64,000 nt of DNA from Flavobacterium daejeonense DSM 17708 (lineage in GTDB: Bacteria > Bacteroidota > Bacteroidia > Flavobacteriales > Flavobacteriaceae). Position 1 is the first letter of the stretch. Each line of letters begins with the position of its first letter. The notes beneath the pieces were generated by a model. It was not told where the DNA came from. It worked only from the letters and a program-made list of their open reading frames with translations, and ran no database searches. This document shows positions 1 to 5,159 of the stretch, in pieces. The stretch is from contig NZ_AUDK01000003.1 of assembly GCF_000425425.1 (NCBI RefSeq), positions 1-64,000 on the forward strand, given 5' to 3'. The translations under genes and the position numbers were made by a program.

Positions 1-151
1 CGTCCCGATAGATTCTGTGTTGATTTCCTAATAAAACTAAATTTTATTTTCATCGGGAAGCCTTTTCTATGTTTAATATTCTTAATTTTGTCGTCTAAGT
101 CGGTCTTAGAGCCAGACTGTATAGCGTGTTTATGCCTTTTGTGCTAGCACG

Positions 152-1168
152 CTATTTTTTTTTTAATTCATACCCCTTGTCATATACTGTTTTGTTTTTA
201 TAAATAACATATATCAGTTCCAATAATTTTCTCTGTACAGACACGCATGCTTTCATTTTAATTCCGTGTTTTGCTACTATTCTTGCGTATTGATCTCGAA
301 AGTTATCATTCCATTTTATCGTGCTAAGTGCCGGTAAATGTAAAGCACTTCTCAAATATCGATTTCCTTTCTTCGATATTTTCGGTTTGCCTTTTACAGA
401 CGTTCCTGACTGTTTTTCAACCACATCCAATCCTGCGTAACTGGTCAATTGTTTTTTACTTCGTATCAGCTCAAATCCGTTAGTTTCACCAATAACAGTT
501 GCCGCTGTCAATATTGAAACACCTGGAATTGTACAAATATTAGTAATATCAATCGTAAGCTCCTTATGTTCTTTTACAATACTTTTAATCTCATTTTTAA
601 TTTCTTTTTCAAGTGTATTCAGAAAATATATTCTTTTTTTCAACCGTTCAATAGTAGAAAAATGAGGTATTGCTTCGGTTTCTTCTGCATGTAATTGGTT
701 TTTTACGATTGTTCTCTCGTCTGTAATTTGACGACGTTCACGTGTAAGTTGCTTTAGTACTCTATGTATATCTTTTGGTTTTTTCCAATTCTCTAATTTT
801 CTTTCCAATCCGAATCTAGCGATTGCCTCTGAACACGTTTTGTCTGTAATTGTTTTGATGTCTAATGTTCTCATATAATTACTGATTTTATTAGGCAACA
901 CAATACTCAAATCCTCTTGTTTTTCATCGAGATAATAGGCAAACTTTTGGTGATAAACACCTGTGGCTTCCATAACATAAAGTACTTTTATTTCTTTGTC
1001 TGTTAGCTTACTTACCCATTCTGAAAGTTTTAAAAATCCATTTTCGGTATTTTTAAAAACATTATAGGCGTATAATTCGATTTTCAGATCCTCATACAGC
1101 CTCCCTAATGTGACCACTAATTCTTTTTGAGCTACATCAATTCCTAATACCTGTTTTAAAAGTTTCAT
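152..1168 (-). CDS. IS110 family transposase
   Basis: The 338-aa protein has the two-part IS110 layout. The N-terminal DEDD RuvC-like domain starts at GIDVAQKEL (about residues 9-17) and includes VMEATGVYH near residue 65. The C-terminal Transposase_20 domain has the PGVSILTAATVIGE and SYAGLDVVEKQSG segments (about residues 213-255), followed by the serine-bearing GNRYLRSALH region. These recombinases insert and excise the element through a circular intermediate, guided by a bridge RNA. Length is typical and the frame is intact, so the element may be active. It starts at the first ATG after the long non-coding left end. A hairpin (121-155) overlaps its stop codon. Confidence 0.95.
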   Translation of the reverse strand: MKLLKQVLGIDVAQKELVVTLGRLYEDLKIELYAYNVFKNTENGFLKLSEWVSKLTDKEIKVLYVMEATGVYHQKFAYYLDEKQEDLSIVLPNKISNYMRTLDIKTITDKTCSEAIARFGLERKLENWKKPKDIHRVLKQLTRERRQITDERTIVKNQLHAEETEAIPHFSTIERLKKRIYFLNTLEKEIKNEIKSIVKEHKELTIDITNICTIPGVSILTAATVIGETNGFELIRSKKQLTSYAGLDVVEKQSGTSVKGKPKISKKGNRYLRSALHLPALSTIKWNDNFRDQYARIVAKHGIKMKACVSVQRKLLELIYVIYKNKTVYDKGYELKKK

Positions 1169-1214
1169 AACTTCTTAATTTTAAATATAATATTATAAAG
1201 TGATGAATCTTCCT

Positions 1215-1376
1215 TCGTCTTTTCTCCTGGTTGGATATTCTGGATAATACGACTTGCGTAGTTCCTTACATTCTGTTCAGACTCTAAAAGATAAAAAGAA
1301 TGAGGCATTATCTATCGGACAATATACTTCTGGAGTTATTTAGCCATCGGTATGCTCTCATCCTTTTCACTTCATT
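1215..1376 (-). ncRNA. Candidate IS110 bridge RNA
   Basis: The region lies in the element's left end, upstream of the transposase, where IS110-group bridge RNAs are encoded. A -7-like TATATTTG (minus strand, 1382-1389) would start transcription near 1376. On the minus strand a stem AAAAGGATGAG / CTCATTCTTTT encloses an internal loop. Its 5' side carries GAGAGCAT (1359-1352), close to left target GAGGCAT. Its 3' side carries CCGATAG (1318-1312), complementary to right target CTATCGG. Downstream, ACAGAAT (1276-1270) equals the donor left end at 12-18, and CAGGAG (1229-1224) is nearly complementary to the donor right end CTCCCG. The exact RNA ends are estimates. Confidence 0.65.
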
Positions 1377-1381
1377 ATATC

Positions 1382-1389
1382 CAAATATA
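1382..1389 (-). promoter_or_regulatory. -7 element (TATATTTG) in the IS110 left end
   Basis: A match to the Bacteroidetes TAnnTTTG consensus lies just upstream of the putative bridge RNA. No good -33 TTTG sits at the usual spacing. Confidence 0.4.
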
Positions 1390-1448
1390 CATCTTCGAGA
1401 TCAAATTATTTTTACAACGCAAACATAGGAGCTATCGGGAGATGCCTC

Positions 1449-1480
1449 AAAAAAGAGATACAGAAATGTGTCTCTTTTTT
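1449..1480. terminator. AAAAAGAGA/TCTCTTTTT hairpin beside the IS element
   Basis: Arms AAAAAAGAGA and TCTCTTTTTT flank a short loop. This is a symmetric A/T-flanked hairpin immediately outside the element end, and could terminate in either direction. Confidence 0.5.
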
Positions 1481-1521
1481 TATATCTAGTCGTAGTGAAA
1501 TTAATAGTTACTAGCAATAAA

Positions 1522-1546
1522 AAAAACCACTCTTTTAAGCGGTTTT
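1522..1546 (-). terminator. Rho-independent terminator after the LysE-family gene
   Basis: On the minus strand AAAACCGCT / AGTGGTTTT form a stem followed by a T-run, 15 bp past the stop codon of the LysE-family gene. Confidence 0.75.
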
Positions 1547-1560
1547 AAATATTCCATATA

Positions 1561-2244
1561 TTATTCATTTTCTATTTTTTGAAAAGCTTTCGTAACCATT
1601 TCCTTTTCTTTTGGAAACCAGCCCTGGGTTATTAAAACCACTCCAAAAACCATTAAAACCACACTGATTCCTTTTTTAATTCTAAGAATATTTCCGGGAG
1701 TCATTTTAGATTGTAATTGTTTGGCTAAAAGAATTTTAACACAATCTACTAATAAATAAGTAATAATTACGGTACTAAAAAAAGTCATCATTCTGGAAGT
1801 TTGCATATCTAATTTTGGCCCTACAGAAATGATTACCGCCAACCAAAATCCTAAAACTCCAATGTTGATAACATTCAAAAAAAGACCTTTTATAAACAAA
1901 CCAAAATAATCTTTTCTGATGATTTCGTTATCAATTTTCTTAGTATTAATCTTCTTTTCTTTGTGTAAACTGATGTAGGAAATAATTCCGTAAGCCAGCA
2001 TTACAATACCTCCAAATATAAAAAGTGCCGGTTTGTCTTTCAAACTTTGAATTAGTCTGAAACTCCCTAAATAGGCAATTGCAATAAAAATAATGTCGCC
2101 TGAAACTACTCCTAAATCAAATGACAAAGCGGCTCTAAATCCCTTTATAATACTGGTTTCAAGCAGAATAAAAAAAACGGGACCAATCATAAAACTCAGG
2201 AAAACTCCCCAAGGAATACCCGATAAAATATCGTTAATCATCAA
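1561..2244 (-). CDS. LysE/RhtB family translocator
   Basis: The 227-aa integral membrane protein has about six hydrophobic segments. The N-terminal PWGVFLSFMIGPVFFILLETS segment matches the LysE family signature, with a Gly/Pro-rich first helix. The family exports amino acids or related small molecules across the inner membrane; the substrate cannot be told here. A charged loop (KEKKINTKKIDNE, about residues 95-107) separates the two halves. It is last in a minus-strand series after rnr and the DUF2807 gene, 36 bp downstream of the latter, and ends at a clear terminator. Two adjacent ATGs are possible starts. Confidence 0.85.
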   Translation of the reverse strand: MMINDILSGIPWGVFLSFMIGPVFFILLETSIIKGFRAALSFDLGVVSGDIIFIAIAYLGSFRLIQSLKDKPALFIFGGIVMLAYGIISYISLHKEKKINTKKIDNEIIRKDYFGLFIKGLFLNVINIGVLGFWLAVIISVGPKLDMQTSRMMTFFSTVIITYLLVDCVKILLAKQLQSKMTPGNILRIKKGISVVLMVFGVVLITQGWFPKEKEMVTKAFQKIENE

Positions 2245-2280
2245 TTTTAGAATTTTTTACCGAATAAAAATACATTTTTT

Positions 2281-2964
2281 TTATTCTTTTTCTTCTATTT
2301 TTCCTCCTAAAATCGTTTGTTGATTAATTTGTTTCGGTTTTCCATAGATAGAAATTGTACCTCCGGCTTTCACTTTTGCATCCACTAAAGTGCTGGCATT
2401 CACCTCAGCATTACCTCCTGCCGAAACAGTTACAGTCGTTTGAGAAGTATGTAAATTTTTAGATTTTAAAACACCTCCGGACATAATCACTACATCCTGA
2501 TTAGCGGCGGCTCCACTTAACTGAATTATTCCTCCTGTAACTGCTTTTACATTTACTTTTTGAGCATCCACTTTCAGATTAATAGTAGCGCCTTCTTTGG
2601 CATTCAAATTAAAAATAGTTTGTTTAAAAACAGCTTCACTACTTACTGAAGAACCTTCGCTGGCCATTACATCATCCACATTTTTATAGTATAATTTTAT
2701 CGAAATAGCATCTCCGGATAATAATTTTGGGAAAGGCATTCTTAATTTTAATTCTCCGTTGTTGTTAACCACTTCAACTTCTTTTTCTCTTTCTCCGTTT
2801 ATAATTACTTTATTTTCATTGGAAGCAATCAATTTTACACTCAATTTATCATATACTTTTACACTACTAAAATCACCTAAAACTTTGGTTACCTGTGCAA
2901 AAGTGGTTTGCGAAATAACGGCAATAACTACTAATAATACATTTTTTAATTTCATATTCATCAT
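2281..2964 (-). CDS. Head GIN domain (DUF2807) protein
   Basis: The 227-aa protein has an N-terminal signal peptide (about 23 residues ending in TTFAQ). The rest is a repetitive beta-strand region rich in V, N, G and S, such as VTVSAGGNAEVNAST near the C-terminus. This is the pattern of the head GIN/DUF2807 family, predicted right-handed beta-helices of Bacteroidetes envelopes with no established function. The start codon lies 2 bp past the rnr stop, so the two are very likely cotranscribed. Two methionines precede MKLK; the exact start is uncertain by three residues. Confidence 0.8.
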   Translation of the reverse strand: MMNMKLKNVLLVVIAVISQTTFAQVTKVLGDFSSVKVYDKLSVKLIASNENKVIINGEREKEVEVVNNNGELKLRMPFPKLLSGDAISIKLYYKNVDDVMASEGSSVSSEAVFKQTIFNLNAKEGATINLKVDAQKVNVKAVTGGIIQLSGAAANQDVVIMSGGVLKSKNLHTSQTTVTVSAGGNAEVNASTLVDAKVKAGGTISIYGKPKQINQQTILGGKIEEKE

Positions 2965-2966
2965 CC

Positions 2967-5159
2967 TTAATTTTCTGTTTCTTCTGATCTTCTTAAATAA
3001 TTAAAATCCAATTGTTTTTTAACCAAATCGGCATTTTTTACCTTAACGTAAATTTCGTCTCCTAATTGTAATAATCTGTTGGAAGTTGCTCCTACCAAGG
3101 CATATTGTTTTTCATCAAAGGTGTAATAATCTTCTTTTATATCTCTGATCCGAACCATTCCTTCGCATTTATTTTCAATAATTTCAACATAAATTCCCCA
3201 TTCGGTAACTCCTGAAATTACACCCAAAAACTCCTGATCCTGATGATCCTGCATGTATTTAACCTGCATATACTTGATAGAATCACGCTCAGCATTTGTC
3301 GCTAAACCTTCCATAGTAGAACAATGCAAACATTTTTCTTCATACAATTCTTCATCTGCCGATTTTCCTCCGTCCAGATAATATTGTAACAAACGATGTA
3401 CCATAACGTCCGGATAACGACGTATAGGCGAGGTAAAATGAGAATAATAATCAAAAGCTAATCCGTAATGACCAATATTATCTGTAGAATATTTAGCCTT
3501 ACTCATACTTCGAATAGCTAAAGTATCAATCAAATTTTGTTCTTTCTTACCGGAAACATCCTCCATCAATTTATTTAATGATTTCGAAATATCACCCGGA
3601 TTTCTAAAATCAATTTTATATCCAAACTTAGCAATCACATTTTGCATCGCAATCAGTTTGTCTTCATTAGGTTCGTCGTGAATTCTATACACAAAAGTTT
3701 TCTTTTGTTTTCCAATAAATTCAGCTACTCTCCTATTAGCCAACAACATAAATTCTTCAATTAAATGATTGGCATCTTTTGATATTTTAAAATAAACACC
3801 TTCTGGTTCGCCGTCTGCATCCAGATTGAATTTTACTTCAACTTTATCAAAAGAAATAGCACCTTCGTTCATTCGTTTTCGGCGTAAAATTTTAGCTAAT
3901 TCATCCAATTTTAGCGTTGCTGAGACAATTTCTGCAGGAACTTGATATTCGCTACCCGTTAATGAAATTTCAGCCGGAATTACATCGTTTTTGGTTTCAA
4001 TGATGTATTGGGCTTCTTCGTAGGCAAATCGTTGATCCGAATAAATTACTGTTCGTCCAAACCATTGATTGATAACCTGACTTTTTTCATTGATTTCAAA
4101 AACTGCCGAAAAGGTATATTTTTCTTCCTGAGGTCTTAAAGAACAAGCAAAATTTGACAAAACTTCAGGTAACATAGGCACTACCCTATCTACCAAATAA
4201 ACCGAAGTTGCTCTTTGATAAGCTTCATCATCCAAAATAGTTCCTTCTTCTAAATAATGCGAAACATCGGCAATATGGATTCCTATTTCGTAGTTTCCAT
4301 TCTCTAATTTTTTAAACGAAAGCGCATCATCAAAATCTTTTGCATCTTTTGGATCAATGGTAAAAGTCAAGGTATCACGCATATCGCGACGTTTGGCAAT
4401 TTCTTCATCACTAATTGAAGTATCAATTTTTTGAGCATAAGTTTCCACTTCAATTGGAAATTCAGCTGGTAAACCATATTCGGCCAAAATGGCGTGAATT
4501 TCAGTATCATGTTCTCCCGGTCTTCCTAAAACTTTGACTACTTTTCCAAAAGGACTATCGGCTCTTTTAGGCCAGTCTTCGATATGAACCAGTACCACAT
4601 CACCATTTTTAGCATCTTCTATTTTATCTTTTGGTATAAAAATATCAGTGTACATTTTTGGATTGGCAGTCGAAACAAAAGCAAAGTTTTTTTGGATATC
4701 AATAACTCCAACAAAATCAGTTTTAGCTCTTTCAATAATTTCAACTACTTCGCCTTCAGGACGTTTTCCTTTCCTTCTGTTATAAATATAAACCTTAACT
4801 CTGTCTTTATCTAAAGCACGATTCAAATTATTCGTTGGAATAAAAATATCTTCTTCAAATTCTTCACAAATAAAATAAGCCGTTTTACGACTGGTCATAT
4901 CTATCGTTCCTTCGTAATAATCCTGACTAATCACTTTGATTAAATATTTTCCGGGTTCGGTTTCAGTGATTTTTTTGGCAGCAGCCAATAACTTTAAATC
5001 TTTTATTATCTGATTTCTGCTTTGGGTATCATCTTTGTCCAAAATAGCGGCTATCTGCTTATAATTAAAAGCTTTATTAGCACTTTTAGACAATATTTTT
5101 ATAATTTTATCAGAGAAATTTTTCTCTTTTTTAGCAGGCTTTCTTAATCTTTTTCCCAT
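2967..5159 (-). CDS. rnr: Ribonuclease R
   Basis: The 730-aa RNase II-family 3'-5' exoribonuclease degrades structured RNA. In order it has an N-terminal winged-helix region (about 15-75), cold-shock/OB domains (about 80-240), and a catalytic RNB domain starting near residue 265. DPKDAKDFDDAL (about 269-280) supplies the metal-binding aspartates. HYGLAFDYYSHFTSPIRRYPD lies in the C-terminal part of RNB, and a C-terminal S1 domain covers about 640-720. Length and order match bacterial RNase R. It is first in the minus-strand series with the DUF2807 and LysE-family genes and diverges from the DUF2007 gene across 119 bp. Confidence 0.97.
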   Translation of the reverse strand: MGKRLRKPAKKEKNFSDKIIKILSKSANKAFNYKQIAAILDKDDTQSRNQIIKDLKLLAAAKKITETEPGKYLIKVISQDYYEGTIDMTSRKTAYFICEEFEEDIFIPTNNLNRALDKDRVKVYIYNRRKGKRPEGEVVEIIERAKTDFVGVIDIQKNFAFVSTANPKMYTDIFIPKDKIEDAKNGDVVLVHIEDWPKRADSPFGKVVKVLGRPGEHDTEIHAILAEYGLPAEFPIEVETYAQKIDTSISDEEIAKRRDMRDTLTFTIDPKDAKDFDDALSFKKLENGNYEIGIHIADVSHYLEEGTILDDEAYQRATSVYLVDRVVPMLPEVLSNFACSLRPQEEKYTFSAVFEINEKSQVINQWFGRTVIYSDQRFAYEEAQYIIETKNDVIPAEISLTGSEYQVPAEIVSATLKLDELAKILRRKRMNEGAISFDKVEVKFNLDADGEPEGVYFKISKDANHLIEEFMLLANRRVAEFIGKQKKTFVYRIHDEPNEDKLIAMQNVIAKFGYKIDFRNPGDISKSLNKLMEDVSGKKEQNLIDTLAIRSMSKAKYSTDNIGHYGLAFDYYSHFTSPIRRYPDVMVHRLLQYYLDGGKSADEELYEEKCLHCSTMEGLATNAERDSIKYMQVKYMQDHQDQEFLGVISGVTEWGIYVEIIENKCEGMVRIRDIKEDYYTFDEKQYALVGATSNRLLQLGDEIYVKVKNADLVKKQLDFNYLRRSEETEN

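What the first reader, a model, noticed from the sequence alone, without database searches (positions are those of the whole stretch)
1..1460. An IS110 bridge RNA whose guides can be read against the flanks
Seen: the element's left end contains segments matching both target halves and both donor ends in the order and sense known for IS110/IS621 bridge RNAs. On the minus strand the loop 5' side GAGAGCAT resembles left target GAGGCAT (one bulged A). The 3' side CCGATAG pairs with right target CTATCGG. ACAGAAT equals the left donor, and CAGGAG pairs with CTCCCG at 5 of 6 positions. The common CT core fixes the ends at 10-11 and 1440-1441. The inferred target is GAGGCAT-CT-ATCGGGAC. Established: IS110 recombinases use bridge RNAs. 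Inference: this copy is intact and programmed for that site.
Basis: partly seen in the sequence, partly recalled or inferred. Interest (0 to 1): 0.8.

Follow-up and report, generated by a model that had tools for sequence, protein, structure and literature searches.

The report
RNA-guided jumping element targeting palindromes
A bacterial jumping element seems to carry its own guide RNA that steers it into a short mirror-image DNA repeat common in its host; it and its relatives lack a residue thought essential for this enzyme, and one branch carries metal-efflux and other genes, mostly at one site in conjugative DNA.

Summary
The window begins with an intact-looking IS110-type element (minus strand, cores at 10-11 and 1430-1431) with a two-loop bridge RNA at 1378-1197. 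A second identical copy shows that the target is a palindrome, TCCCGATAG-CT-ATCGGGA, whose 14-bp centre occurs 45 times in this genome; six of six copies of a 66%-identical relative sit in it. GAGGCAT is only the outer flank of this copy. Across relatives the ends stay nearly fixed, flanks vary, and both target guides follow the flanks (0 of 100,000 permutations each). Covariation supports the fold.

Two features exceed a routine member. All 32 aligned clade proteins lack the fourth Asp of DEDD (Cys/Ala/Ser), essential in IS621, yet two genomes with no other IS110 recombinase hold identical copies. And a monophyletic branch (12 genomes) has its right end 1.5-9.9 kb away. The ten examined enclose other genes (arsenite and chromate efflux among them), eight beside the same conjugative-element gene, with one exact empty site. 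Nothing was tested at the bench.

The parts
10..1431 (-). IS110-type element with the CT core at each end (1,420 bp counting one core)
   Evidence: identical copy on C27 and partial copy on C2; end motifs kept in relatives with other flanks
1..9 (-). right target half ATCGGGACG (window begins at contig start)
10..11 (-). core CT at the right end of the element
12..18 (-). left donor ACAGAAT (right end of element)
   Evidence: same in relatives whose right end was found
152..1168 (-). recombinase, 338 aa, DEDD_Tnp_IS110 + Transposase_20
833..835 (-). codon of Cys112, aligned with catalytic D105 of IS621
   Evidence: essentiality in IS621 from PMC11208158 (passage)
1197..1378 (-). predicted bridge RNA (structured part)
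1294..1368 (-). target-binding loop
1352..1359 (-).
1342..1350 (-). left target guide CCGATGGCT
1312..1319 (-). right target guide TCCGATAG; the next two bases (1311-1310, AT) sit where the handshake guide lies in IS621
1207..1292 (-). donor-binding loop
1270..1276 (-). left donor guide ACAGAAT
1224..1228 (-). right donor guide AGGAG
1382..1389 (-). TATATTTG, possible Bacteroidota -7 box (TAnnTTTG, recalled); no TTG found 17-24 bp before it
   Evidence: inference
1424..1431 (-). core CT (1431-1430) and right donor CTCCTATG
1432..1440 (-). left target half TCCCGATAG; with 11-1 it restores the palindrome TCCCGATAGCTATCGGGA

Best explanation
This is a bridge-RNA-guided IS110-type element of Flavobacterium that inserts into a REP-like palindrome. 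The recombinase binds the RNA made from the element's 5' non-coding end. One loop holds the two ends of the excised circle (ACAGAAT-CT-CCTATG). The other holds the palindrome TCCCGATAG-CT-ATCGGGA through CCGATGGCT (pairs with the bottom strand, left half) and TCCGATAG (pairs with the top strand, right half). Strand exchange at CT inserts the element and splits the palindrome. Because the target is a palindrome, the two guides are near copies of each other (CCGATGG/CCGATAG). Shown by computation: the ends, the target, guide-flank agreement, RNA covariation, identical copies. Inferred from IS621: expression, RNA binding, circle formation and strand exchange. Also inferred: the clade works with an active site that lacks the fourth Asp.
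For: Identical copies with different flanks outside the palindrome. CCGATAGCTATCGG: 45 places in this genome, reversed control 0; present in 66 of 150 Flavobacterium genomes. Relative G362 (66% identity): six of six copies in TCCCGATA(G/T)-CT-ATCGGG with the same left guide. Donor ends nearly fixed while flanks vary. Own guide versus own flank: LTG mean 5.69 against 3.76 for other flanks (n=21), RTG 5.32 against 3.01 (n=17), 0 of 100,000 permutations each, and again 0 without L001, L042 and L040. RNA fold: 98.4% of cells paired and 21 of 44 pairs with double changes, each reached by 0 of 500 shuffles. Model R1 finds the RNA in 18 of 18 held-out clade loci searched that keep the left end. NCBIfam 'IS110 family RNA-guided transposase' 169.3 bits, cut-off 140. 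All three PF02371 hits in this genome are this element.
Against: Fourth DEDD residue is Cys; in IS621 mutating D105 abolished recombination (PMC11208158, passage). The left guide has G where the target has A (wobble), and the right guide lacks one C of CCC. For three relatives the left guide scored poorly against its own flank in the preset register (L028, L030, L036), and right guides of L039, L027 and L030 ranked their own flank only 5th to 7th of 17. L115 has a poor left match. Folding the single sequence gave only z = -0.89. No site with intact palindrome and no element was found opposite a copy of the window's element: the orthologous site in G005 lacks the palindrome too. L040's palindrome is not abundant in its own genome (0 whole sites). 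The four Rfam matches at E up to 5 were all below gathering score. Donor guides never vary, so they were not tested. No expression data.
Confidence: 0.88

Rival explanations
1. One reading: target GAGGCAT-CT-ATCGGGAC, core at 1440-1441, left guide GAGAGCAT.
For: GAGGCAT does flank the window copy and resembles GAGAGCAT.
Against: Copy C27 has another flank there; GAGAGC is conserved stem, five of six positions paired in 16 of 16 relatives; relatives place the end at CTCCTATG.
Confidence: 0.02
2. TCCCGATAG/CTATCGGGA are the element's own terminal inverted repeats, recognised by protein, as in ordinary transposons.
For: They flank the copies in this genome and in G362.
Against: The nearest relative L039 (87% identity) keeps CTCCTATG and ACAGAAT-CT but has other flanks (TTAGCGA / TTGCGAG), as do other relatives; the palindrome centre occurs 45 times uninterrupted.
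Confidence: 0.03
3. The clade is catalytically dead and was moved in trans by canonical IS110 enzymes that carry D105.
For: G422 also carries IS110 genes with intact TDRKDA; D105 is essential in IS621.
Against: All PF02371 hits in this genome and in G022 belong to the element itself (3 of 3 and 3 of 3), yet each genome has at least two copies identical over the compared stretch. The D105-less clade has 100/100 support and spans Bacteroidota and one Ignavibacteriota MAG. A helper lost since the last move is not excluded.
Confidence: 0.12

Closest known systems
IS621 (IS110 group; PMC11208160, PMC11208158; passages seen)
   Same: RuvC-like plus Tnp domains, bridge RNA in the 5' non-coding end, target and donor loops, CT core, insertion in palindromic repeats (REP)
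   Different: remote in sequence (phmmer E 6e-20); fourth DEDD residue replaced by Cys; other donor ends; target centred on a perfect 18-bp palindrome
ISEc21-type IS110 with seekRNA (PMC11187229; passages seen)
   Same: non-coding RNA upstream of tnp guides target choice; that paper moves engineered cargo
   Different: no natural cargo in the passages seen; relatives of the window element have other genes between their ends
Tn7 at attTn7 (recalled)
   Same: the cargo-bearing branch mostly uses one conserved site beside a conserved gene
   Different: one IS110-type recombinase with a guide RNA; Tn7 proteins were not looked for

Membership tests
IS110 family (IS110 group) | DEDD_Tnp_IS110 and Transposase_20 domains / NCBIfam equivalog | tested here: met
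   Pfam 65.9 and 85.2 bits, cut-offs 29 and 21.3; NF033542 169.3 bits, cut-off 140
IS110 family (IS110 group) | complete DEDD tetrad | tested here: not met
   D11, E67, D109 present, fourth is Cys112; C, A or S in 32 of 32 clade rows, D in 11 of 11 outgroup rows. Hence filed as a variant, not as a plain member
IS110 family (IS110 group) | conserved Ser-Gly in the Tnp domain | tested here: met
   SGTS aligned with the SG of IS621/ISCro4
IS110 family (IS110 group) | structured RNA in a long non-coding end upstream of the gene | tested here: met
   (sequence and covariation; no expression data)
IS110 family (IS110 group) | target guides match both target halves | tested here: met
   permutation test; misses listed in the report
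IS110 family (IS110 group) | donor guides match both donor ends | tested here: inconclusive
   ACAGAAT and AGGAG match, but nearly no variation to test
IS110 family (IS110 group) | circular intermediate and RNA-dependent strand exchange | not testable with these tools
   needs experiment
IS1111 group | RNA downstream of the gene, subterminal inverted repeats of 7-17 bp | tested here: not met
   RNA lies upstream; the inverted flanks belong to the target

The most novel reading that the evidence does not exclude
A Bacteroidota clade of bridge-RNA recombinases recombines with a DED(C/A/S) active site instead of DEDD, and one branch of it is a natural RNA-guided cargo transposon: its guides take it in most cases to one conserved site beside the PRTRC module of conjugative elements, where it delivers variable efflux and transport genes and hitch-hikes between cells.
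Probability: 0.6. Interest if true: 0.85.

Novelty: new variant of a known kind. Interest (0 to 1): 0.68.

Why it matters
Bridge recombinases are being built into genome-writing tools. A clade that seems to move without a residue held essential would change the picture of the active site and is directly testable. The cargo-bearing branch would show that nature already uses bridge RNAs to carry multi-kilobase cargo to a chosen site, with an exact empty site to compare. The clade also offers natural retargeting: a near relative with a different target, and a distant one with the same target and guide.

Tried and rejected
Rfam (window 1-5000, E up to 5) gave four matches, all below gathering score. 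Folding one sequence alone was uninformative; the alignment settled it. An empty site for the window's own element was sought in 60 relatives: of 15 loci compared, 13 hold both flanks of the C2/C27 copy, and the one read at base level (G005) has neither palindrome nor element. A bipartite promoter (TTG, 17-24 bp, TAnnTTTG) was not found in the left end or across the circle junction. L040's palindrome is not a repeat in its own genome. No structure prediction was run, because the tool lists no coordinates among its outputs. The RNA alignment holds 16 of 21 non-redundant left ends: five (L031, L054, L033, L073, L048) were left out only because the script stopped with an error; they then served among the held-out loci. 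Rows dropped before the permutation test: near-copies L045, L047, L075; L052 has no left end. L048 is the only cargo-branch row in that test; its right flank was not yet known, so it counts for the left guide only. L115, L116 and L118 were fetched later and are not in it.

Full report
WHAT IS THERE. The window is contig C3:1-64000 of a 4.24-Mb, 49-contig genome. Its genus is Flavobacterium by inference: the genus-mates G127 and G393 give the same hits as named Flavobacterium records. At its very start lies an IS110-type element on the minus strand: recombinase 152-1168, donor ends CTCCTATG (1431-1424) and ACAGAAT (18-12), cores CT at 1431-1430 and 11-10. The same sequence is at C27:1-1440 and, cut by a contig end, at C2:353717-354128, all 100% identical. 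In 13 of 15 relatives' loci the flanks seen in C2 and C27 are neighbours, so these two contig ends probably meet at one copy. The genome has at least two copies, perhaps three.

CORRECTING THE TARGET. C3 and C27 agree up to 1440 and then differ. Outside the donor ends they share TCCCGATAG on one side and ATCGGGACG on the other; with one core this is TCCCGATAG-CT-ATCGGGACG, which holds a perfect 18-bp palindrome. Its 14-bp centre occurs 45 times in the genome and the reversed control 0 times; 66 of 150 Flavobacterium genomes have it, up to 74 times. In G362, whose recombinase is 66% identical, five copies and a sixth, six of six, sit in the same palindrome, one with T for G next to the core. 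GAGGCAT is therefore only the window copy's outer flank.

GUIDES AGAINST FLANKS. In the D105-less clade the donor ends are nearly constant while flanks vary. I scored the left and right guide of each element against its own flank and against all others, excluding the core. Left guide: 21 elements, own mean 5.69, others 3.76. Right guide: 17 elements, own 5.32, others 3.01. None of 100,000 permutations reached either value, also after removal of the palindrome targeters L001, L042 and L040. Against this: L028, L030 and L036 ranked their own left flank 21st, 17th and 12th of 21 (by eye L028 and L030 fit at another offset); L039, L027 and L030 ranked their own right flank 5th, 6th and 7th of 17. 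Several elements share similar targets, so first rank is not expected of each. L115, met later, matches its right flank but poorly its left one. The donor guides match the donor ends but hardly vary, so they cannot be tested this way.

THE RNA. On 16 relatives the consensus fold has a target loop and a donor loop; 21 of 44 pairs have changes on both sides. Four of five measures were reached in 0 of 500 shuffles and the fifth in 1 of 500; slid structures pair in 49-55% of cells. The structure was derived from this same alignment. A covariance model from these 16 was run over 32 sources. It found the RNA in 18 of 18 held-out clade loci that keep the left end, not in L052, whose left end is lost, and in 4 of 10 outgroup loci. 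In the 64-kb window it matched the element only, on the right strand at 197.5 bits, and weakly antisense at E = 0.048; other weak or antisense matches had E from 0.00027 (L075) to 0.52. L118 was not searched.

RETARGETING. The tree (47 proteins; the program warned of long branches) pairs the window protein with L039 (100/100), which sits in TTAGCGA-CT-TTGCGAG, while L042, with the window's palindrome and the same left guide, sits in another group (100/99). Either the guide arose twice or it was exchanged.

THE MISSING FOURTH ACID. Against IS621 and ISCro4 the protein aligns D11, E67 and D109, but C112 at D105. In 32 of 32 clade rows the residue is C, A or S, in 11 of 11 outgroup rows D; four clade proteins fetched later (L115, L116, L117, L118) also lack it. 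The clade has 100/100 support. In IS621 mutation of D105 abolished recombination (PMC11208158, passage). Yet this genome and G022 each hold at least two copies identical over the compared stretch, and all their hits to the Tnp family are this element (3 of 3 and 3 of 3). In G362 and G422 other IS110 genes exist, canonical in G422, so copies there prove less. Several acids are specific to the clade, among them D/E at 103; whether any takes over is open. I did not see this variant mentioned in the DEDD passages of PMC11187229 and PMC11208160; neither was read in full.

A CARGO-BEARING BRANCH. Twelve relatives (57-59% identity, one match per genome, one clade with 98/93; 11 of the 398 genus genomes, and G742) form a branch of their own. 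I took up to 20 kb downstream of ten, then of the last two. The exact right end AACACAGAATCT followed by TTTCT is there in 12 of 12, 1.5-9.9 kb from the end of the recombinase match. Of the first ten, nine keep the left end beside TTTTGCTT; their guides (TTTTGCTTT; AAGAAAAG) fit the joined target TTTTGCTT-CT-TTTCTTTGG. That 19-mer is intact in 22 of 199 genomes. G060 has the exact empty site of the G213 element: left flank 97% over 1,001 aligned bases, right flank 93% over 1,509, only CT between. Between the ends of the ten lie varying sets of genes. Family searches were made only on ORFs of three of them, L131, L126 and L132: ACR3 arsenite efflux (442.8 bits, cut-off 282.8), chromate efflux (318.4, 171.7), ArsR-type regulator (67.9, 55), NhaA (461.1, 423), DUF6428, DoxX, PAP2, phosphoesterase, methyltransferase; sulfate permease, CDF and thioredoxin-type arsenate reductase models matched below their cut-offs. 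By eye ACR3-like and chromate-type ORFs occur in six of ten each, and two carry only the permease-like ORF. The gene content of the last two was not examined.

ITS SITE. The right flank of L126 holds PRTRC ThiF, B and E, and a tyrosine recombinase. Eight of ten right flanks are homologous over 1.4 kb or more; L130 shares only about 100 bases, and L124 none by BLAST, so these two lie elsewhere or in rearranged DNA. All 20 fetched intact sites share that flank. In this genome's two such regions the site lies between TraN of a conjugative transposon and PRTRC ThiF; TraN was not looked for at the cargo-bearing loci. I read this as a natural bridge-RNA-guided cargo element that lands mostly in conjugative elements. 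Paper searches (listings; passages of PMC11208160, PMC11187229 and PMC7371123) showed only engineered cargo; preprints and most subscription papers are not held.

MECHANISM. Shown is sequence: ends, target, guides, fold, copies. Excision as a circle, RNA binding and strand exchange are inferred from IS621. Insertion into palindromic repeats is itself known for IS110 elements (REP; PMC11208160, passage), so the window element alone would be a new member; the absent acid and the cargo branch make the clade a variant.

Noticed in passing
L123-L132, L185, L186 (12 Flavobacterium genomes): IS110-type elements of the same clade have their right end 1.5-9.9 kb away; the ten examined enclose other genes (arsenite and chromate efflux among them), eight of ten at one site in conjugative-type DNA; exact empty site in L144.
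   Followed up: yes
L049 and L117, upstream of the recombinase: The left end with the target loop of the bridge RNA appears tandemly duplicated.
   Followed up: no
L153:1178-11460 (G000:C6): Two copies of the cargo-branch target site enclose about 10 kb with a beta-galactosidase-like gene and a SusC and SusD-like pair, no IS110 gene inside, between PRTRC ThiF and TraN.
   Followed up: partly
L116, L119-L122 (G422): Five copies of a 58%-identical element share 17 bases of right flank beyond the core, so the target may itself be a dispersed repeat; the left guide matches GGCTGT-CT.
   Followed up: partly
L052/L129 (G179): A cargo-branch element keeps its right end but has no left end or RNA upstream; unrelated sequence lies there.
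   Followed up: partly
L124 (G381) and L130 (G236), right flanks: Two cargo-branch insertions lie outside the usual flank (none and about 100 bases shared), so the site is not strictly fixed.
   Followed up: no
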